Source of the DNA: a virus
Virus record (IMG/VR): IMGVR_UViG_3300042888_001941
Coordinates: 62,001-126,000 of that record
DNA: 64,000 bases
Reading direction: 5' to 3' (one strand)
Made by a program: the position numbers and the translations under genes. A model generated the notes under the pieces. That model saw only the letters and a program-made list of their open reading frames with translations, searched no databases and was not told the origin of the DNA. Below, in pieces: positions 16,193 through 54,981 of this stretch; position 1 is the first letter of the stretch; each line of letters begins with the position of its first letter.

Positions 16193-19384
<3,192 letters not shown>

Positions 19385-19474: not shown

Positions 19475-21643
<2,169 letters not shown>

Positions 21644-21760: not shown

Positions 21761-23206
<1,446 letters not shown>

Positions 23207-27556: not shown

Positions 27557-27925
<369 letters not shown>

Positions 27926-32255: not shown

Positions 32256-33638
32256 ATGCCAATAACAACTACGCCAAACGGCGGTCCTCAAGGGGAGTTT
32301 AGCACTTACACTCCTATTTACGCGCAGACTTTATCTAGTGCTGCTGCCACAGTAACACTCTCAAATATTCCTACTACATACACAGATCTTAGAATCGTTG
32401 TTTCACCGGCAAGCAGCGACAATCTGTACGGAATGGATATGGTATTTAATGCAGACACCGCTTCTAATTACTCAATGACGGAGTTAAGAGGAAACGGAAC
32501 TTCTGCCCTTTCGAGCAGATTGTCCAATCAAACAAAAGCGTGGATTTATTACAACATCAACCCAGGAACTACTCTAGGCGATAACACAGTTCTTATTGAC
32601 GTGGTTAACTACGCCAACACCACAACCTTTAAGACTGCATTTTCTAGGTTTAATTCAATGGGTGGGTCATATCAAGGAACAGGCGGAATCGTAAACTTAT
32701 GGCGCAAGACCCCTGAAGCTATTACAAGCATTAAACTATCTATGACTGGCGCTAATTTTAAGATTGGCTCAACATTTACACTTTACGGAATCAAAGCAGC
32801 CGCCCCTGCTCCTAAGGCAACTGGTGGAGATGGAGTCTACACAGACGGTACTTATTGGTATCATGTATTTAACAGCTCTGGAATTCTTGATGTGCGACAA
32901 GATCTTACTTGCGATTACCTTGTAGTTGCAGGTGGCGCAGGCGCGGGCTACTTGTCTGGTGGTGGCGGAGCTGGGGGTTACAGGCACTTCACCTCTCAGT
33001 CTCTAACAGCAAAACAGTATCCAGTAGTAATAGGAGCGGGTGGCGCTAAAGCAAGCGTTACACGTACTTCAGGAGCAAACGGCAGTAATACGTCTTTTAA
33101 TTCTGTATCTTCAACTGGTGGTGGACACGGTTCTTTTGAAGACGGTAACGCTAATGCTGGCCTTGCAGCTAGTGCGGGTGGTTCTGGTGGTGGAGCACCA
33201 GTAGCAGAGCCGAGCAACGCGTACGGCGCAGGTAACGCGGGAGGTTACACTCCAGTTGAAGGTTACCGTGGTGGCGGTGGAACAGGAGACCGTAATTACA
33301 ACAATGGAGCTGGCGGCGGTGGTGGTTCTTCTGCAGTTGGTGGAAATGGTACAACGTCTTCCGGCGGTGCAGGTGGCGCTGGAACTTTAAATTCAATCTC
33401 GGGAACTGCAGTCTACTATGCAACAGGTGGCGGTGGAGCTTTTAACTTTAATGGGTCTCATGGAAGTGGCCTAGCAAACCTTCAAAGCGGCTCTGGAGGC
33501 AGCAGTAGCAGTGGAACTACTGCAGGAACTGGTAATCCAAACACTGGAAATGGCGCTGGCGGCAGATATAATGGCGGAACTGCTAGTGATTCTGCATCTG
33601 GTGGCTCAGGAGTTGTAATTGTGAGGTACGCGGTCTAA
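32256..33638 (+). CDS. Adhesin: cassette beta domain plus glycine-rich domain
   Basis: A 460-residue protein. The beta domain is about 20-185 (Ile-Pro-Thr-Thr-Tyr-Thr-Asp-Leu-Arg-Ile, Val-Val-Asn-Tyr-Ala-Asn-Thr-Thr, Thr-Leu-Tyr-Gly-Ile-Lys). The hinge (Lys-Ala-Thr-Gly-Gly, Asp-Gly-Thr-Tyr-Trp-Tyr-His) is near 188-205 and the glycine-rich domain about 220-455. It has a longer N-terminus than its paralogues. The stop overlaps the next ATG by one base. Proposed receptor-binding protein. Confidence 0.75.
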   Translation: MPITTTPNGGPQGEFSTYTPIYAQTLSSAAATVTLSNIPTTYTDLRIVVSPASSDNLYGMDMVFNADTASNYSMTELRGNGTSALSSRLSNQTKAWIYYNINPGTTLGDNTVLIDVVNYANTTTFKTAFSRFNSMGGSYQGTGGIVNLWRKTPEAITSIKLSMTGANFKIGSTFTLYGIKAAAPAPKATGGDGVYTDGTYWYHVFNSSGILDVRQDLTCDYLVVAGGAGAGYLSGGGGAGGYRHFTSQSLTAKQYPVVIGAGGAKASVTRTSGANGSNTSFNSVSSTGGGHGSFEDGNANAGLAASAGGSGGGAPVAEPSNAYGAGNAGGYTPVEGYRGGGGTGDRNYNNGAGGGGGSSAVGGNGTTSSGGAGGAGTLNSISGTAVYYATGGGGAFNFNGSHGSGLANLQSGSGGSSSSGTTAGTGNPNTGNGAGGRYNGGTASDSASGGSGVVIVRYAV

Positions 33639-34960
33639 TGGCTAATACACTTATTCCTATTCAGACTTATACACTTAGTTCAACTACTAACTCAGTGACA
33701 TTTTCCAATATCCCGCAAAATTATACTGACTTAAAGTTAGTTGTTAGTGGGCGTACTTCGCGTGCGGATAACGGCGACTATGCTCTATTGAGTCTTAATG
33801 GCGCTGAAGGCAACTCTGCAAGAGGTATCTGGGGTTATGGAACAACGATACTTTCAGACGACACAACTAACAATGCGTTAATTGTTCCTGGTAATACTGC
33901 AACGGCATCCACATTCAGCAATTTAGAAGTTCACTGCCCAAACTACACAAGTACTACAAGTAAGTCTGTGTCTATAGACGCTTCAGCAGAAGATAATGCG
34001 TCTGCCTCAAATGGAAATAAACTAAGCGCTATTTTATGGTCCAGTGGTTCTGCTTCAACTTCTGCTGTTACAACAATTACTTTAGCAGCGCGTTTTGGTA
34101 ACTTTTTATCAGGTTCTACTTTCACTCTTTACGGAATCTCAAACGGCGTAAAAGCAGTCGGTGGAACACTTACCGTTGCAGGCGGATACGCATACCATAC
34201 CTTTACTTCAACAGGTTCTTTCTTGCCTAATCAAAGAATCAAAGGCGCAGAAGTTCTAGTAGTTGCTGGTGGTGGTGGCGGCTGCGGGTACGGAGCAGGC
34301 GGCGCGGGAGGACTTTCTTACAAGTCTTCATCTACTTTTGACGTTGGTTTTTACACAGCAATAATTGGTTCTGGCGGAGCAAGCGGAATTTCTGCTGGCG
34401 GAGCGGTCGGTGGTTCTGGCACCAATTCAGTATTTGCAGGAATCACTTCTAATGGTGGCGGTGGCGGTCGTACTAATAACACTGGTCTTTCTGGCGGCTC
34501 TGGCGCTGGCGGATCCTACTCAAATCAAGCAGGTGGAGCAGCAACACAAGGAAACACTGGCGGAGCAATCGGATACGGAAATGCTGGCGGCACCGGGTAC
34601 TCAAACAACACTACTATCTTTAACGCGGGTGGCGGCGGCGGAGCGGGAGCTGCAGGTATTGCCGGGACAGTCACGCCGAATGATGGCGGAGACGGTTTGC
34701 AGACGTGGGCGTTGTGGGCAACTGTCACAGGCACAGGTGAAAGTGGCTACTACGCTGGTGGCGGAGGCGGTTGTAGCCGACAGACAAACAATATGGGTCG
34801 TGGAGGACGCGGCGGTGGTGGCGCTGGTGGAAACAGAAACACTTCTGCTGTTGCTGGCGCTGCTGTAGCTAATACAGGCGGCGGTGGTGGAGCTGGCGAT
34901 GATGACGCAGGTGGTGCAGGAGCTTCAGGTATCATAATTGTTCGTTATCCTTTAAGTTAG
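33638..34960 (+). CDS. Adhesin: cassette beta domain plus glycine-rich domain
   Basis: A 440-residue protein, last of the cassette genes. The beta domain is about 1-170 (Ile-Pro-Gln-Asn-Tyr-Thr-Asp-Leu-Lys-Leu, Cys-Pro-Asn-Tyr-Thr-Ser-Thr, Thr-Leu-Tyr-Gly-Ile). The hinge His-Thr-Phe-Thr-Ser-Thr-Gly-Ser-Phe lies near 188-196, followed by the glycine-rich domain (about 207-437) ending Ala-Ser-Gly-Ile-Ile-Ile-Val-Arg-Tyr. It is followed by the two glycosyltransferase genes on the same strand. Confidence 0.75.
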   Translation: MANTLIPIQTYTLSSTTNSVTFSNIPQNYTDLKLVVSGRTSRADNGDYALLSLNGAEGNSARGIWGYGTTILSDDTTNNALIVPGNTATASTFSNLEVHCPNYTSTTSKSVSIDASAEDNASASNGNKLSAILWSSGSASTSAVTTITLAARFGNFLSGSTFTLYGISNGVKAVGGTLTVAGGYAYHTFTSTGSFLPNQRIKGAEVLVVAGGGGGCGYGAGGAGGLSYKSSSTFDVGFYTAIIGSGGASGISAGGAVGGSGTNSVFAGITSNGGGGGRTNNTGLSGGSGAGGSYSNQAGGAATQGNTGGAIGYGNAGGTGYSNNTTIFNAGGGGGAGAAGIAGTVTPNDGGDGLQTWALWATVTGTGESGYYAGGGGGCSRQTNNMGRGGRGGGGAGGNRNTSAVAGAAVANTGGGGGAGDDDAGGAGASGIIIVRYPLS

Positions 34961-35007: not shown

Positions 35008-36048
35008 ATGAAAGTAGCTGCCTACGCCATCGCGTTGAATGAAGAAAAGCATGCTGCCCGCTGGGCTGAAACCACAAAGGGCGCAGACTTCCGCCTTGTG
35101 TGTGATACTGGATCCACTGATAGAACCGTTGAGATCCTTCGTGAGCATGGCGTAATCGTTCATGAAATATCTGTAAAGCCTTGGCGCTTTGACGTTGCTC
35201 GTAACACCGCACAGAGTTTACTTCCTAATGACGTAGACGTATGCTTGTCACTTGACATGGACGAGCTTGTAGATGAAAACTTTTTTGATGAGGTTCGCAA
35301 GCAGTGGATTCCAGATGCTAACAAAGGCTGGTGCGATTTTGACACAGGTCACGTTTGGTTAGGTTGTCGTTTACACGCGCGTCATGGTATGTATTGGAAG
35401 TATCCAATTCACGAGGTATTCGTTCCGTCGCTTGATACACCGATTAGAAGCATAACAATTACTGGAACTAAGATGTATCACAAGCCGGATGACACAAAAT
35501 CACGCGGACAGTACCTACCTATGCTTGTTGCCGCGTCAAAAGAATTTGGAGAAGATCACCGCATCTGGGTCTATCTTACTCGCGAATACATGTTCTATAA
35601 GATGTGGGACCTAGTTCTATCAAGTGCTGAAAAAGTTCATGCGTTTAGTAAGGACTGGTATGTTGAGAGAGCTGCGGTGTGTCGTTGGGCAAGCGAGGCT
35701 TGCCGTATCCTTGGTCAACCTGAGACTGCAATGGTGTGGGCAGATCGCGCAATTGAGATTGATCCTTGCGGTGAAAATTACTTTGAGAAGGTTCGTTGCT
35801 ACTATGAGCGCGGCGACTGGTCAGGCATTTGGGAAACATCCAAGATAGTTGCTCGCTGCGAAAAAACAAGTCACTATCTTTCAAGTAAAGATCTGTGGGA
35901 ATGGCGACTCTACGATATGCAGGCTCTTGCAGCGCACAATCTGGGAGATAAGCCTAAGGCAATTAAGTACGGAGAACTTGCAATAGAAGGTAATCCAGTA
36001 GATCTACGATTAAGAAACAACCTAGTATTCTACAAACAAGGGATCTAA
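35008..36048 (+). CDS. Family 2-like glycosyltransferase with C-terminal helical repeats
   Basis: A 346-residue enzyme. The GT-A fold (about 1-200) begins Ala-Ala-Tyr-Ala-Ile-Ala-Leu-Asn-Glu-Glu. It contains Cys-Asp-Thr-Gly-Ser-Thr-Asp-Arg-Thr (nucleotide-sugar binding) and Leu-Asp-Met-Asp-Glu-Leu (the DxD-like metal site), then Trp-x-Tyr-Pro-Ile-His-Glu. Residues about 210-346 look like TPR helices. It should transfer a sugar from a nucleotide sugar to a protein or glycan. Lying directly after the fibre genes, it may glycosylate fibres. Its stop overlaps the next start (TAATG). Confidence 0.85.
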   Translation: MKVAAYAIALNEEKHAARWAETTKGADFRLVCDTGSTDRTVEILREHGVIVHEISVKPWRFDVARNTAQSLLPNDVDVCLSLDMDELVDENFFDEVRKQWIPDANKGWCDFDTGHVWLGCRLHARHGMYWKYPIHEVFVPSLDTPIRSITITGTKMYHKPDDTKSRGQYLPMLVAASKEFGEDHRIWVYLTREYMFYKMWDLVLSSAEKVHAFSKDWYVERAAVCRWASEACRILGQPETAMVWADRAIEIDPCGENYFEKVRCYYERGDWSGIWETSKIVARCEKTSHYLSSKDLWEWRLYDMQALAAHNLGDKPKAIKYGELAIEGNPVDLRLRNNLVFYKQGI

Positions 36049-36911
36049 TGGAGCAGCCAATTGTATTCGTTGCTCTACTTGCAAAACAAAAAGCGCAGGT
36101 ATTAAACTTCTTCCTAGAAACACTTGACGCGTGGGATTACCCTAAGGACAGAATTCATATCTACATCCGCACGAATAACAATACGGATAACACCGAGGAT
36201 ATTCTTGCTGACTGGATTGGTCGCAACGTACAGTCATACCGCAGCGTTGCGTTCGAGACACAGGACGTAGCAGAGCGAGTGCAGGATCTTGAGGTTCATC
36301 AGTGGACAGGTGAAAGATTTAGAGTTCTTGCAAAGATTCGTCAAGAAAGCTTACGCCAATGCTTACTCACAGACGCGGACTATTACTTCGTAGTAGATCT
36401 AGATAACTTCTTATACCCAGACACTCTTAAGGAAATGGTTAAACTTCAACTTCCAATTGTAGCTCCGCTTCTTAGATACGCTATTGCTGGAGGAGATCAT
36501 GCGGATATTCCGACTGAGGCAGCAAAGATAGAAGGACACCAAGGACAGTTCTATGCAAACTATCATCACCTTGTAGATGACTACGGCTCGATTGTAGCAA
36601 ACGACACATACTATAAAATTCTTGACCAAGCAATTAAAGGTCTTATTGAGTGTGACTGCGTGCATTGCACGTACTTAATTAAGCGCGAGTACATTGAACG
36701 CCTTAACTACACCGAGGAATCTGATCGTTGGGAGTACATGGTATTCTCAGAGTCTGCACGCAAGCAGGGTATTCCTCAGTACCTAGATAATCGACGCATC
36801 TGGGGAGTACTTACACTTACAGAGAACGAGAAGGCGTGTCGCTGGTGGATGGATCGCCTTAAGGATCCAGCAACTCAAACTGACCTATATCTTAACCGAG
36901 CGCTAGACTAG
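36048..36911 (+). CDS. Glycosyltransferase, GT25/procollagen-galactosyltransferase-like
   Basis: A 287-residue enzyme. It begins Pro-Ile-Val-Phe-Val-Ala-Leu-Leu-Ala-Lys-Gln-Lys. It has Ile-Arg-Thr-Asn-Asn-Asn-Thr-Asp-Asn-Thr and a metal site Val-Val-Asp-Leu-Asp-Asn-Phe near 125-131. Later motifs are Pro-Ile-Val-Ala-Pro-Leu-Leu and Asp-Cys-Val-His-Cys-Thr-Tyr-Leu-Ile. The ordering resembles the GT domain of collagen galactosyl/glucosyltransferases and related viral enzymes, but this is pattern matching. Coupled to the preceding glycosyltransferase. Its last nine bases overlap the convergent WhiB gene. Confidence 0.75.
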   Translation: MEQPIVFVALLAKQKAQVLNFFLETLDAWDYPKDRIHIYIRTNNNTDNTEDILADWIGRNVQSYRSVAFETQDVAERVQDLEVHQWTGERFRVLAKIRQESLRQCLLTDADYYFVVDLDNFLYPDTLKEMVKLQLPIVAPLLRYAIAGGDHADIPTEAAKIEGHQGQFYANYHHLVDDYGSIVANDTYYKILDQAIKGLIECDCVHCTYLIKREYIERLNYTEESDRWEYMVFSESARKQGIPQYLDNRRIWGVLTLTENEKACRWWMDRLKDPATQTDLYLNRALD

Positions 36912-37418
36912 CTTTTCTTTTTTCTTCTTAGTCTTTTTCTTTTTGGTTGAAGCCTTCAGTAGCTTCTCTTCCCGTTGTGAATGATACGCATCTACAGCAT
37001 TTGCGCTTGTTCGTGAGCGCCAGGTAAAGTCGCAAGCCTCGCATTGAACAAGACGCATGGTTGCCCAGCGTCCGCCATTAGGTGTGTTAACAACAAGTGT
37101 TTTAAGACGATTTGGTCGTGCGTTGCAATAAGGGCATTGCGGGAAACGTTGGCGACGTGATTCTTGTCCGTTCCAGGATACTGAAAGAGTACGACGAATC
37201 TCTCCTTCATCCTTTCCACCCCAGATACCCCAGATTTGTTTGTGCTCAAGCGCCCACTTTAAGCAGTCTTTACGAACAGGACATACGAAGCACAAGTTCT
37301 TTGCTTGATACTTTTCTGCAGGCTCTGTTGAAAAGAAGAAATCTTTTACCTTGTCGTTCTCTGGCAGCGAGCATGTAGACTCTTTTTGCCAGTTAAGCTC
37401 TCCTGGATTTAAGCTCAT
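36903..37418 (-). CDS. WhiB-family regulator with extra C-terminal zinc ribbon
   Basis: A 171-residue protein. The WhiB domain (about 8-75) has the four cluster cysteines Cys16, Cys43, Cys46 and Cys52 and the Gly-Ile-Trp-Gly-Gly turn, so it should bind a [4Fe-4S] cluster and the host sigma factor. Residues about 90-135 add a second Cys set (Cys-Pro-Tyr-Cys and Cys-Glu-Ala-Cys) that looks like a zinc ribbon, and the C-terminus is a Lys-rich tail. The extension is unusual for WhiB proteins, which are often near 100 residues. It is the last gene of the leftward block, probably redirecting host transcription. It overlaps the upstream gene by four bases. Confidence 0.9.
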   Translation of the reverse strand: MSLNPGELNWQKESTCSLPENDKVKDFFFSTEPAEKYQAKNLCFVCPVRKDCLKWALEHKQIWGIWGGKDEGEIRRTLSVSWNGQESRRQRFPQCPYCNARPNRLKTLVVNTPNGGRWATMRLVQCEACDFTWRSRTSANAVDAYHSQREEKLLKASTKKKKTKKKKEKLV

Positions 37419-41450: not shown

Positions 41451-42470
41451 TTATACCTTTCCACTGTATAGCTTTAATGATTCAGTCAATGTAATTGCTG
41501 CATCTCGTTTGGTTGGGATTGCGTTTAAGTACGCGCTCCTTTGATCTTTTGCTAGTTGCATTCTTTCTTCTTGCGACATATGCTCAATTGCAGATGCAAG
41601 CTGCATCCATGAACTTCCAATGAAGCCACTTTCACGCCAGTCAGTAGCAACTGGAGTTAGAGCATTGAGACACTGAACTATGCGGTATGTCCACCATGTT
41701 CCGTTCTGGTGAGGGCTAATCAAAGCTCCTGTGCCACGAGCAATTTGATCTGCTACCTTATCGTCTGCCCAACCTTTATTCCACTTCATAGGAACTGTAG
41801 GATTGGCAAGCATGGCAATGGTTGATTTAGTCCATGGAGAAGAAAAGTTTTCTACTACCCATTTATCAGTTCGTTCAGAGTCAGAAGGTTCTGGCTCTGT
41901 GATTAAGTACCTATCAAGGTTAATTCCTTTAAGACTATTTCGCGCTGGTTCATGCAGTTGCTCTTGAATGTTTTCCTGCGCGGTCCACGGTAGCGTTGGG
42001 TACAACGTAGTAGCCCACTCGTTCGTAAGAAGCGCGTCTACAGTCTCTAGGAGACTCTTTAAGACATCAGGAGCGTTAGCTTGCGTATAACCTTTGCGAT
42101 ATGAGTAAAAAGGCTTCACAAGGTTGTCTGGGTTCTTTTTAATGGCGCGTAGACTAGACACGATGCGCGTAGGCTCTGGCGCGTCAATATAGAAAGATAG
42201 ACGACTGTCACCGCGAAGTAAACCTATAACCTTAAGAGCTCCATAGGTTCTATTTGCACTAAGACTAGTGATAGGGCTTAATCCAACAAGAATTTTGTTA
42301 AAACTCTTTAGGTCATCAAGCGTCCAGGACATTTCAGGATCTGATTGAGTGACCTCGTGCCCTTGTTGAGTAAGCACGTGTACTAGCAAACTTGCAAACG
42401 ATAACGTGCGTTTGTTTGCGTCTGCTGATACGTGTGGAGCAGACATGCCAGTTATAAGAATTTTGCTCAT
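41451..42470 (-). CDS. GT-B-like glycosyltransferase candidate
   Basis: A 339-residue protein starting Lys-Ile-Leu-Ile-Thr-Gly-Met-Ser-Ala-Pro, with a Rossmann-like N-terminal half. The C-terminal half contains Ala-Leu-Ile-Ser-Pro-His-Gln-Asn-Gly-Thr-Trp-Trp-Thr-Tyr-Arg, a GT-B-like donor-site region. The neighbour at 42467 has the corresponding Leu-Ser-Pro-Pro-Tyr-Pro ... Gly-Trp-Trp-Arg-Ser-Arg, so the two are distant paralogues. Proteins of this kind can glucosylate modified bases, as in T4, but protein or lipid targets are also possible. It overlaps the next gene by four bases. Confidence 0.65.
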   Translation of the reverse strand: MSKILITGMSAPHVSADANKRTLSFASLLVHVLTQQGHEVTQSDPEMSWTLDDLKSFNKILVGLSPITSLSANRTYGALKVIGLLRGDSRLSFYIDAPEPTRIVSSLRAIKKNPDNLVKPFYSYRKGYTQANAPDVLKSLLETVDALLTNEWATTLYPTLPWTAQENIQEQLHEPARNSLKGINLDRYLITEPEPSDSERTDKWVVENFSSPWTKSTIAMLANPTVPMKWNKGWADDKVADQIARGTGALISPHQNGTWWTYRIVQCLNALTPVATDWRESGFIGSSWMQLASAIEHMSQEERMQLAKDQRSAYLNAIPTKRDAAITLTESLKLYSGKV

Positions 42471-43678
42471 GCACGAGTCCCATCTGCGTTTAACGCAATA
42501 CCTTTGTCCTCACGAACGGCACGCTCAATGATGCGATTACAGTGCTCAACAAACGCTGAGTACTCAGGGATGTAAGGCTTAAGTGCTTCCTGTTGCGCAA
42601 TTGCCGCCGCAGCTAATTCAGCATCACTCATCTTCTCAACATCAGCAATTGTAAGCTTATAGGCGTCACCTAATGGATCACCTTCGCCCTTATCAGTAAC
42701 AAGAATAGACCCCACGTGCGCTGCGTATAGGAAACGACTACGCCACCAGCCAGAACCAGCGTGTGGGTAAGGTGGTGAAAGAATACCCCAGTGATTATTG
42801 TAGAACTCAAGTACGTCCTGCTCTGTGTCAAAGCGTTGGCCGCCAAGCTTCTTAATAAGTTTACGACTGCCTACAATTTCAACGGGCCACTCTAATGATT
42901 TACGTTCTAGCCAATTATCGTGCGGCATGAGAGCGCCAAGTACCCATGCACGCTTTTTATCAGCCGCAGGTTTTGCAATCACGGGCTGTAACGTAGGAAT
43001 GATAGTTGCTGTTGGGTCAAGAGCTTCAATAGGACCTAATTCATCAGGCATACGCTTGCGAACAATTGACCTATCACCAAATCCATACATAGGGCATACT
43101 GGAACCATGCCAGCTTCCCATCGCTTATCTACAAGATCAGTTGCTGCTTGAACAAGACGCTTTTCCCATGGTTTAATGTTTTCATCGTTGTCCATCATGT
43201 AATAACGTTCGATGTAGCACTTTTTCGCCGCCGCAGGGTTAACCTCACGGATTCTTTCAAGTGCAGCTTCAATGTCTGCGCGACTAAAGTAAGTTGCGCC
43301 TTCTTCACCGCGATGTTCAGTTCCTACAAGCAGATGCTTATACAACATCGCAGGTTTACGAATTAGCGCACGTGCTCCGTTGAATACAGTATTAAACTGC
43401 CAATCATCAAAGAAACCAACACAAGGAATGCCAGATGACAAAGCGTAGAGTGCACCCATCGCACCTTGGCGACCATTTAATGAGTTAAGGGGTGCAAGAT
43501 TGATCCACAGTACGTCATAAGATGACAGGTCTTCGCCAGGTGTAATCTTGCGCCAGTCAACATCGTGACCAGACTCACGCAATGCCCGAGCAATAGACGC
43601 AGGTACGTCAATCTTTTGAATAGTTCTTTTTTCTGTGTTTATCTGCAAAGCAGTAAACCCACTCATTAGAACTTTCAT
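42467..43678 (-). CDS. GT-B-like glycosyltransferase candidate
   Basis: A 403-residue protein. The N-terminal domain starts Lys-Val-Leu-Met-Ser-Gly-Phe-Thr-Ala-Leu. The second domain has Ala-Trp-Val-Leu-Gly-Ala-Leu, Pro-Val-Glu-Ile-Val-Gly-Ser-Arg and Trp-Gly-Ile-Leu-Ser-Pro-Pro-Tyr-Pro-His-Ala-Gly-Ser-Gly-Trp-Trp. This is consistent with a GT-B fold binding a nucleotide sugar. It shares the Leu/Met-x-Gly and Trp-Trp features with the 41451 product. A strong AAGGAGG precedes the ATG. It lies in the DNA-metabolism block, not the fibre locus, so DNA is an attractive acceptor (inference). Confidence 0.65.
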   Translation of the reverse strand: MKVLMSGFTALQINTEKRTIQKIDVPASIARALRESGHDVDWRKITPGEDLSSYDVLWINLAPLNSLNGRQGAMGALYALSSGIPCVGFFDDWQFNTVFNGARALIRKPAMLYKHLLVGTEHRGEEGATYFSRADIEAALERIREVNPAAAKKCYIERYYMMDNDENIKPWEKRLVQAATDLVDKRWEAGMVPVCPMYGFGDRSIVRKRMPDELGPIEALDPTATIIPTLQPVIAKPAADKKRAWVLGALMPHDNWLERKSLEWPVEIVGSRKLIKKLGGQRFDTEQDVLEFYNNHWGILSPPYPHAGSGWWRSRFLYAAHVGSILVTDKGEGDPLGDAYKLTIADVEKMSDAELAAAAIAQQEALKPYIPEYSAFVEHCNRIIERAVREDKGIALNADGTRA

Positions 43679-53803: not shown

Positions 53804-54394
53804 TTATGCTACTGTATTAAATGCACTATTCCAGTTTTCTTCTGTCATCTCGTTTCTAATCACTGACAGGTACGACGGGCCTTTAGTAAAGTACCAGTGC
53901 TCAGGCTCGGCAAAATGAAAAAATATCATTGCAACGTGATTTTCTTTAGGATTGGGAAAGTCTTCTCTCCAGTGCATTTGGTCGTTTCCATAGTAGGCAA
54001 GAGCCTGATTTGGATGAAGAGTATACGCTTTATTTTCTACCCATAGGTCCCACGGGTTCTTTTGATAGACGCACATGTCGATAGTGTAGGTACACGCGTT
54101 ATCGTCCTTGTGCTTGTACAGACTTGCGCTTTCCCCCTCGTAGTGAGAAAAAAGAGTGTAAGTAGGCATGAGGTTTTCACTACCAAAAGTGGATCTAGCT
54201 AAAGGAATAAGCTTTGTAGTGTACTCCTTTAGTTCTTCCATCGTGTTGTCTGCAACAACATATCTAGAAAATCCTTGCTGATACTCAAAAGATTTATAGT
54301 CTGAGAACAGTGACTTTAGACTGTTAAAGTCGTCTTGATTAAAGACGTCATTTAAGACAGCAGGTTCTTTTACAAAAGTCACTATTCCCACCAA
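53804..54394 (-). CDS. 2-oxoglutarate/Fe(II) oxygenase-like protein
   Basis: A 196-residue protein. His95-Lys-Asp97 and the later His141 fit the iron triad of 2-oxoglutarate oxygenases. They are flanked by typical strands (Leu-Phe-Ser-His-Tyr-Glu, Leu-His-Pro-Asn-Gln-Ala-Leu-Ala-Tyr-Tyr, His-Val-Ala-Met-Ile-Phe-Phe-His-Phe). The 2-oxoglutarate-binding basic residue is not obvious. It would hydroxylate a side chain or base. Its start overlaps the next oxygenase gene by 13 bases, so the pair is co-expressed. Substrate unknown. Confidence 0.75.
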   Translation of the reverse strand: MVGIVTFVKEPAVLNDVFNQDDFNSLKSLFSDYKSFEYQQGFSRYVVADNTMEELKEYTTKLIPLARSTFGSENLMPTYTLFSHYEGESASLYKHKDDNACTYTIDMCVYQKNPWDLWVENKAYTLHPNQALAYYGNDQMHWREDFPNPKENHVAMIFFHFAEPEHWYFTKGPSYLSVIRNEMTEENWNSAFNTVA

Positions 54395-54981
54395 CCAACA
54401 ATTGCGTACCTTGTCCCGCTAACAACTGGATGAACTGTATGAGTATACACGTAGTTAGAAGGGAACATAATCATTTGATCCGCAACTGGTTTTATCTTTA
54501 GATTAAAGTTAACAAATTCTATTTCGCCACCTTCGTAATCTTCATTTAGATAGTAGCTCATGGATAAAGTTCTAGGGTACTGTTTCGAGTCATCATAGTG
54601 CTTTACGAAGTGATTATCTTTTCCATACTTTAAAAGTTGCCAACCTTCGTTTATCGTCCAGTGATGCGCCGAGTACAGAGACCTGTAGTCATCTACAGTT
54701 GGCAGTAGTTTTTCATCTATTTTTGCAGAAAGTTCTGTAAACACGCTCGGATTATTTTTGAACTCTGGGTGCTTATCGTACGATGGCAATGATATTGCAA
54801 AGCAGTCTCTGGCGCTTTTATTCACCATGCTGTCACCGTCAGCGCCGTCCGACTGTGAGGCTTGATACCAGCTAAGTTTCTTTTCAGCTACAAGATTTTC
54901 AATGTACGCAATTAGCCCTAAGGAGTCTCCCGTCACATTCGTATAAGAAATTATTCCTGGAGCTAGTTCTTCTCTACTCAT
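54382..54981 (-). CDS. Prolyl-4-hydroxylase-like 2-oxoglutarate oxygenase
   Basis: A 199-residue enzyme. The C-terminal half is the P4Hc double-stranded beta helix: His128-Tyr-Asp130, then Ser-Tyr-Tyr-Leu-Asn-Glu-Asp-Tyr-Glu-Gly-Gly-Glu. The distal ligand His181 lies in Tyr-Thr-His-Thr-Val-His-Pro-Val and the 2-oxoglutarate-binding Arg191 in Gly-Thr-Arg-Tyr. The full set is present, so activity is likely. The substrate could be Pro in fibres or in the Thr-Pro repeat protein at 55670, but this is inferred. It is the upstream member of an oxygenase pair. Confidence 0.85.
   Translation of the reverse strand: MSREELAPGIISYTNVTGDSLGLIAYIENLVAEKKLSWYQASQSDGADGDSMVNKSARDCFAISLPSYDKHPEFKNNPSVFTELSAKIDEKLLPTVDDYRSLYSAHHWTINEGWQLLKYGKDNHFVKHYDDSKQYPRTLSMSYYLNEDYEGGEIEFVNFNLKIKPVADQMIMFPSNYVYTHTVHPVVSGTRYAIVGWWE

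What the first reader, a model, noticed from the sequence alone, without database searches (positions are those of the whole stretch)
35008..36911. Two glycosyltransferases placed right after the collagen-like/adhesin locus
Seen: the collagen-like tracts have Thr at most Y positions, and two coupled glycosyltransferases follow the locus; the second resembles collagen galactosyltransferases. Known: Thr-rich collagens in Bacillus BclA and in worm cuticle are O-glycosylated, which helps stabilise the triple helix. Inference: this phage glycosylates its own fibres.
Basis: partly seen in the sequence, partly recalled or inferred. Interest (0 to 1): 0.6.

Follow-up and report, generated by a model that had tools for sequence, protein, structure and literature searches.

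The report
Phage enzymes sugar-coating its collagen fibres
A freshwater phage ends its tail-fibre gene cluster with two sugar-attaching enzymes, one of them related to a domain of the human collagen galactosyltransferase; the same enzymes sit beside threonine-rich collagen-like genes in many other phages and in unrelated bacteria, so the phage most likely decorates its own collagen-like fibres with sugars.

Summary
GT1 (35008-36048) and GT2 (36048-36911) are real, overlap by one base, and end the tail-gene run. Thr fills 75% of 526 collagen Y positions. GT2 is specifically a relative of human collagen galactosyltransferase COLGALT1 (profile E=2e-32, model Z=30.9), but only of its N-terminal GT-A domain (GalT-N), reported as catalytically dormant in man. 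GT1 is a GT-A+TPR peptide-glycosyltransferase type, like GmaR, SunS and ThuS, with the layout published for C. difficile SgtA, which puts GlcNAc on collagen Thr.

Support for fibre glycosylation is comparative. In Mesorhizobium, 30/30 evaluable Thr-rich collagen loci have a GT-A/TPR gene as divergent neighbour, against 0/6 loci with little Thr at Y; nine of those neighbours join a GT1-like and a COLGALT1-like part, in the phage's gene order. In unselected viral contigs, GT1 accompanies Thr-Y collagens (14/111) but not Lys-Y ones (0/99). Some sister phages add sugar-nucleotide or methyltransferase genes beside GT2.

Best reading: GT1 starts and GT2 extends O-glycans on fibre Thr. No glycan, donor or activity has been shown. 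Thr at Y alone proves little; it is common in bacterial collagens.

The parts
35008..36048 (+). GT1: GT-A glycosyltransferase with C-terminal TPR-like helices, 346 aa; probable initiating peptide O-glycosyltransferase
   Evidence: phrog_13126 E 3e-68; GmaR E 1e-7 and TPR proteins by profile; AF2 model pLDDT 78, Foldseek top hits ThuS/SunS peptide glycosyltransferases 4e-12, then TPR proteins
35254..35262 (+). DxD metal/donor motif of GT1 (D83-M-D85)
   Evidence: invariant D83 and D85 in alignments A2 and A3
36048..36911 (+). GT2: single GT-A domain homologous to the GalT-N domain of COLGALT1, 287 aa; probable second glycosyltransferase
   Evidence: COLGALT1 E 1.8e-32 by profile; AF2 pLDDT 91; VIA-align Z 30.9 to COLGALT1, 26.7 to LH3 AC domain, 21.9 to mimivirus R699 AC domain
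36396..36404 (+). DxD motif of GT2 (D117-L-D119, followed by N120)
   Evidence: D-x-D-N in 80 of 80 family domains; aligned to human D166-x-D168, required for COLGALT1 activity (PMC3244457)
3341..6718 (+). gene with collagen-like tracts, 188 triplets, Thr at 126 Y positions; candidate acceptor
16208..19384 (+). collagen-like tail-fibre gene, 137 triplets, 117 Y-Thr; candidate acceptor
   Evidence: Pfam Collagen 1e-58
19475..21643 (+). collagen-like fibre gene, 101 triplets, 77 Y-Thr; candidate acceptor
   Evidence: Pfam Collagen 2e-44
21761..23206 (+). collagen-like fibre gene, 81 triplets, 59 Y-Thr; candidate acceptor
   Evidence: Pfam Collagen 5e-35
27566..27925 (+). short collagen-like gene, 19 triplets, 15 Y-Thr; candidate acceptor
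   Evidence: Pfam Collagen 5e-9
33638..34960 (+). Gly-rich adhesin-like gene directly upstream of GT1; alternative acceptor
   Evidence: Pfam Gly_rich_2 E 1e-12
36903..37418 (-). whiB-like gene convergent with GT2; fixed landmark of the slot in relatives
   Evidence: WhiB annotated at the same place in DSL-LC01; found near GT2 across loci

Best explanation
GT1 and GT2 form a late-expressed cassette that O-glycosylates Thr residues in the Y positions of the phage's collagen-like fibres inside the host cell, probably before the chains trimerise. GT1 (GT-A plus TPR) would bind the fibre chain and put the first sugar on Thr, as C. difficile SgtA does on BclA3. GT2 (GalT-N-like GT-A) would add the next sugar or act as the collagen-specific partner of GT1. 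Glycans would replace the stabilisation that Pro and Hyp give elsewhere (only 3.5% of X/Y residues are Pro here) and shield the fibres. Shown: gene structure, homology, conservation of DxD motifs, and the association with Thr-Y collagens. Inferred: activity, donor sugar, acceptor residue, order of action and benefit.
For: GT2: COLGALT1, LH3 and mimivirus R699 are the top structural matches. GT1: matches GmaR and ThuS/SunS, which modify proteins or peptides; its size and layout equal SgtA's (358 aa, GT-A + 4 TPR, gene next to bclA3; PMC7157674). 58 of 59 evaluable phage loci keep GT1 next to GT2. 12 of 13 records scanned carry collagen: 11 of the 12 long GT2 contigs plus DSL-LC01; the exception has GT2 at its contig end. 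Bacterial proteins fuse a GT1-like part and a COLGALT1-like part in the same order and lie divergent from collagen genes with 97-100% Thr at Y. Mesorhizobium: 30/30 evaluable Thr-rich collagen loci have a GT-A/TPR neighbour, 0/6 low-Thr loci do. Viral contigs: close GT1 homolog near 14/111 Thr-Y and 0/99 Lys-Y collagens, p=1e-4. Some sister phages carry sugar-nucleotide or methyltransferase genes beside GT2.
Against: No glycan, donor or activity is shown. GalT-N is reported as catalytically dormant in human COLGALT1 (PMC13382579), although its DxD is needed for activity (PMC3244457). Gly-rich adhesin genes, not collagen genes, lie directly upstream of GT1. Most Thr-Y collagens in the viral sample (97 of 111) have no close GT1 homolog in the stretch fetched (about 9 kb on average). 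Thr-Y content does not differ between GT1-positive and GT1-negative loci (0.74 vs 0.71, p=0.57). Several bacterial GT2 homologs (Paenibacillus, Polycladospora, TM6, an actinobacterial MAG) have no collagen gene within 10 kb. Related genomes are not independent data points.
Confidence: 0.7

Rival explanations
1. The two enzymes glycosylate virion proteins other than the collagen tracts, such as the Gly-rich adhesin modules directly upstream or capsid and tail-tube proteins, to shield or tune them.
For: Adhesin genes, not collagen genes, are the direct neighbours of GT1. Mycobacteriophages are reported to glycosylate capsid and tail-tube proteins with their own enzymes (PMC12363180, citing Freeman 2023).
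Against: The homologs follow Thr-Y collagens in Mesorhizobium. Lys-Y collagen contigs lack close GT1 homologs. GT2's nearest structural relatives are collagen-modifying proteins.
Confidence: 0.15
2. The enzymes modify host cell-surface glycans, giving superinfection exclusion or receptor change.
For: This role has been proposed for glycosyltransferases of freshwater actinophages (PMC10202952).
Against: The genes close the structural-gene run. GT1 carries TPR-like helices and matches peptide glycosyltransferases. A lipid or cell-wall acceptor does not explain the collagen association.
Confidence: 0.07
3. The enzymes glycosylate hypermodified phage DNA against host nucleases.
For: Suggested for glycosyltransferases of Ca. 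Planktophila phages (PMC10202952). The window also encodes a C5 cytosine methylase.
Against: GT2 is a GT-A enzyme of the COLGALT1/LH3/Mnn9 kind, whereas the classical T4 DNA glucosyltransferases are GT-B (own knowledge). The bacterial homologs sit beside collagen genes.
Confidence: 0.04
4. GT2 is not an enzyme but a non-catalytic scaffold that presents the collagen chain to GT1, as GalT-N and the LH3 AC domain are described to be in animals. The acceptor would still be the fibre, but GT1 alone would do the chemistry. (This is a variant of the best explanation, not exclusive of it.)
For: GT2 aligns with GalT-N and with the AC domains, not with the catalytic GT25-type domains. GalT-N is called a dormant structural scaffold (PMC13382579).
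Against: D-x-D-N is kept in 80/80 homologs and a VHCTYL-like motif in 73/80. No GT25 partner for it to support was found in the window. Mnn9, solved with GDP and Mn, is also close (Z 21.4).
Confidence: 0.2

Closest known systems
Human COLGALT1/GLT25D1 collagen galactosyltransferase (LH3 and mimivirus R699 more distantly)
   Same: GT2 shares the GalT-N GT-A fold over nearly its whole length (Z 30.9, 258 residues, 24% identity) and the DxD site.
   Different: The phage protein lacks the catalytic GT25-type GalT-C domain. Its likely acceptor is Thr, since Lys is 1.3% of Y positions. The donor is unknown.
Clostridioides difficile SgtA, beta-O-GlcNAc transferase of collagen-like BclA3
   Same: GT1 has the same size and layout (GT-A + TPR, 346 vs 358 aa) and comes from a locus with Thr-Y collagen genes (PMC7157674).
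   Different: SgtA's sequence was not compared here. The phage has a second, COLGALT1-like enzyme and the acceptor would be a virion fibre.
Listeria GmaR and SunS/ThuS peptide glycosyltransferases
   Same: GT1's nearest solved relatives by profile (GmaR, 1e-7) and by fold (ThuS/SunS, 4e-12).
   Different: Their acceptors are flagellin and a bacteriocin peptide (own knowledge), not collagen.
Mimivirus collagen modification (L230, R699)
   Same: A virus that encodes both collagen-like proteins and collagen glycosyltransferases (PMC9546862, PMC11838735).
   Different: Mimivirus modifies hydroxylysine in a eukaryotic host; here it is a tailed phage with Thr-rich tracts.
Mycobacteriophage virion glycosylation (Che8, Corndog, Myrna)
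   Same: Phage-encoded glycosyltransferases that modify virion proteins (PMC12363180).
   Different: There the capsid and tail tube are modified; whether those enzymes are related to GT1 or GT2 was not tested here.

Membership tests
COLGALT collagen galactosyltransferases | N-terminal GalT-N GT-A domain | tested here: met
   E 1.8e-32 and Z 30.9
COLGALT collagen galactosyltransferases | C-terminal GT25-type catalytic GalT-C domain | tested here: not met
   GT2 ends after the GalT-N-like domain; a GT25 query finds no homolog in the window. The Mesorhizobium fusion does have it: residues 404-882 align to COLGALT1 24-494, E 1e-41
COLGALT collagen galactosyltransferases | transfers Gal from UDP-Gal to collagen hydroxylysine | not testable with these tools
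   needs biochemistry; Lys is only 1.3% of Y positions
SgtA/GmaR-type peptide O-glycosyltransferases | GT-A domain followed by TPR repeats | tested here: met
   Pfam below cut-off but concordant, profile hits, AF2 model with helical C-terminus and TPR matches
SgtA/GmaR-type peptide O-glycosyltransferases | sequence homology to a member | tested here: met
   GmaR E 1e-7 with profile A2; SgtA itself not compared
SgtA/GmaR-type peptide O-glycosyltransferases | O-linked sugar on Ser/Thr of a protein | not testable with these tools
   needs MS or an in vitro assay
Phage virion glycosylation systems | phage-encoded glycosyltransferase among structural genes | tested here: met
   GT1 and GT2 end the + strand tail-gene run
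Phage virion glycosylation systems | glycans on virion proteins | not testable with these tools
   no virion of this phage is available
T4-type DNA glucosyltransferases | GT-B fold | tested here: not met
   GT2 model is GT-A, nearest to COLGALT1, LH3, Mnn9 and SpsA; GT1 nearest to ThuS/SunS

The most novel reading that the evidence does not exclude
A prokaryotic collagen O-glycosylation system that matches Thr-Y collagens with a GT-A/TPR initiator and a COLGALT1-type enzyme exists in bacteria and in tailed phages. The phage GT2 would be an active, free-standing form of a domain that has become dormant in the animal collagen galactosyltransferase, and fibre glycans would take over the helix-stabilising role of hydroxyproline.
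Probability: 0.4. Interest if true: 0.8.

Novelty: new variant of a known kind. Interest (0 to 1): 0.62.

Why it matters
Phage-encoded virion glycosylation and bacterial or giant-virus collagen glycosylation are each known. I found no report of a tailed phage pairing Thr-rich collagen fibres with a relative of the animal collagen galactosyltransferase. If true, it would explain how near-proline-free phage collagens could hold a triple helix. It could give small enzymes for making glycosylated collagen in bacteria. It would also link the animal enzyme to bacterial proteins that align with it over both domains and sit beside collagen genes.

Tried and rejected
GT2 tblastn against 50,697 phage records: no match, so no named phage record with GT2 was found. 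NCBIfam gives no family for either enzyme. Two human COLGALT1 structure papers named by PMC13382579 are not held, so the statement on domain activity rests on the review. Search of the own record for prolyl-hydroxylase-like proteins found one 2OG-Fe(II) oxygenase (54382-54981, -); rejected as a likely collagen hydroxylase because Pro is 0.4% of Y positions. Thr-Y content and proline content do not differ clearly between GT1-positive and GT1-negative viral collagens, so composition alone does not predict the enzyme. A repeated promoter-like motif before GT1 was sought; the stretch occurs once.

Full report
WHAT IS THERE. The window is 62001-126000 of a 136,434-bp virus record. GT1 (35008-36048) and GT2 (36048-36911) are the last genes of the + strand tail region and meet a convergent whiB-like gene at 36903. 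A TAATG junction joins them. Five genes carry collagen tracts with 526 Gly-X-Y triplets: Thr 74.9%, Gln 8.4%, Lys 1.3%, Pro 0.4% at Y; Ala 40%, Leu 14%, Val 14%, Pro 6.7% at X. Only 3.5% of X/Y residues are proline, unlike the prophage collagens of E. coli, which have Pro at close to half of the X positions (PMC3368898). Between the last collagen gene and GT1 lie adhesin-like modules, several with Gly-rich sequence.

GT2. Pfam sees a marginal Glyco_tranf_2_4/Anp1 match. phmmer against the PDB finds only collagen-modifying enzymes at E<1: COLGALT1 at 4e-17, LH3 weakly. With 18 homologs the profile reaches COLGALT1 at 1.8e-32 along residues 2-256 in two collinear pieces. The AlphaFold2 model (pLDDT 91) has as best PDB matches COLGALT1, then LH3, then mimivirus R699, then a gap to Mnn9. 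VIA-align places it on COLGALT1 from residue 49 (to 320 in 9u7i), LH3 293-542 and R699 250-455, that is, on GalT-N and the accessory (AC) domains. Among predicted viral structures the best hits are giant-virus proteins, one named as a procollagen-lysine dioxygenase and one as a PLOD-like GT protein. A 2026 review states that GalT-N is catalytically dormant in man and GalT-C active (PMC13382579), while an older mutagenesis study found the D166A-D168A mutant inactive (PMC3244457). The phage and bacterial family keeps D-x-D-N in 80 of 80 domains.

GT1. It belongs to PHROG 13126, 'beta-1,4-glycosyltransferase'. The profile finds GmaR at 1e-7 and TPR proteins. The model (pLDDT 78, less certain) has a GT-A half and about ten C-terminal helices; its best matches are ThuS and SunS peptide glycosyltransferases, then TPR proteins. 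C. difficile SgtA, 358 aa, GT-A plus four TPRs, encoded next to bclA3, adds beta-O-GlcNAc to Thr of collagen repeats in vitro (PMC7157674).

PHAGE RELATIVES. 62 IMG/VR loci carry GT2. Of 59 in which the neighbouring position can be read, 58 have GT1 beside it; the exception is the most divergent, L060. In L048, L049, L051, L052 and L058 GT1 is on the other strand; in the two of these that were aligned (L048, L052) it carries a C-terminal extension that by eye resembles the separate SAM methyltransferase of L017. Of 13 records scanned with the Pfam collagen model, 12 match, including L060's; the one without, L055's, has GT2 at its contig end. Between GT2 and whiB some relatives carry an NAD-dependent epimerase and a GT-like gene, some a methyltransferase, and in the L055 type an oxidoreductase (best NCBIfam match UDP-GlcNAc 3-dehydrogenase, below its cut-off), a DegT aminotransferase and a hexapeptide acetyltransferase. 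The annotated relative DSL-LC01 has collagens, a tryptophan halogenase, a GT1 homolog and WhiB in a row, without GT2.

BACTERIA. A scan of 84,980 species found 25 relatives of GT2; 15 have a collagen-tract gene in the fetched stretch, 10 of them with 95-100% Thr at Y in the main tract. Most are fusions: GT-A and TPR, then a GalT-N-like domain, then in some a GT25 domain. A 934-aa Mesorhizobium protein aligns with human COLGALT1 over residues 404-882 in one stretch (E 1e-41) and with GmaR at 4-153. In 146 Mesorhizobium genomes, 15 have a strong GT2 match (E<1e-50) and all 15 have collagens, against 70 of 131 others (p=2e-4).

DISCRIMINATING TESTS. (a) Mesorhizobium collagen loci were fetched with flanks. 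Of loci with high Thr at Y whose upstream side lies on the contig, 30 of 30 have a GT-A/TPR gene as divergent neighbour: nine the GT2-type fusion (one of them, L144, split over three overlapping ORFs; one, L148, without the GT25 part); 17 a GT-A/TPR protein of about 1,260 aa, in 15 of these followed by a close GT1 homolog (E<1e-75), the other two being cut by the fetched edge; four other GT-A/TPR proteins. Six loci with Thr at 18% or less of Y have none (p=5e-7). I made this count from the printed tables; it includes two low-Thr tracts that may not be true collagens (L181, L182), and the genomes are related, so the p-value overstates the case. Eleven loci cut at a contig end were left out. (b) Viral contigs were drawn by a Thr-Y or a Lys-Y DNA pattern without regard to enzymes. 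A close GT1 homolog lies in the fetched stretch of 14 of 111 Thr-Y loci and 0 of 99 Lys-Y loci (p=1e-4); in L257, L297, L298 and L207 it lies under 30 bases from the collagen gene on the same strand. Thr-Y content and proline content do not separate GT1-positive from GT1-negative loci, so the enzyme is one option among several for such fibres.

MECHANISM. Most likely GT1 docks on the unfolded fibre chain through its TPR part and glycosylates Thr at Y, and GT2 extends the sugar or acts as collagen-specific partner. Fusion of both parts in one bacterial protein, in the same order, supports joint action. Donor, linkage and order are inferred. The low proline content suggests that glycans stabilise the helix; that is a hypothesis.

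LIMITS. All evidence is from sequence and predicted structure. The tree of GT2 domains separates a phage clade (98/95) from a bacterial clade (99/99), with an actinobacterial MAG protein and L060 outside; it was rooted at the midpoint and does not show direction of transfer. Human COLGALT1 was not placed in it.

VERDICT. Observation confirmed; interpretation partly supported; new variant of known kinds (phage virion glycosylation, bacterial and giant-virus collagen glycosylation).

Noticed in passing
L142:9233-12037 and other Mesorhizobium loci: Bacterial proteins that align with human COLGALT1 over both domains, with an extra GmaR-like N-terminal GT, lie divergent from collagen-like genes with about 99% Thr at Y.
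   Followed up: partly
L055:3599-6178, and the same slot in L053, L054, L056, L057: Oxidoreductase, DegT aminotransferase and hexapeptide acetyltransferase genes between GT2 and whiB (read in L055; the others have a gap of similar size): a likely phage-borne amino-sugar nucleotide pathway beside the glycosyltransferases.
   Followed up: partly
L048:10861-12537 (-), L052:10870-12522 (-): GT1 on the opposite strand with a C-terminal extension resembling a SAM methyltransferase found as a separate gene in L017; possible glycan methylation.
   Followed up: partly
L064:18433-20004: In phage DSL-LC01 a gene annotated as tryptophan halogenase overlaps the start of the GT1 homolog, in the place where the window has an adhesin gene.
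   Followed up: no
window 41451-42470 and 42467-43678 (-): Two paralogous genes without a Pfam match, related to a DSL-LC01 gene annotated as glycosyltransferase; conserved in most relatives.
   Followed up: partly
window 54382-54981 (-): 2OG-Fe(II) oxygenase (PF13640, 66 bits); substrate unknown.
   Followed up: no
L065:5207-6816: A freshwater actinobacterial MAG has a GT2 homolog overlapping a GT25-like gene, as if COLGALT1 were split in two genes; no collagen gene in the fetched stretch.
   Followed up: no
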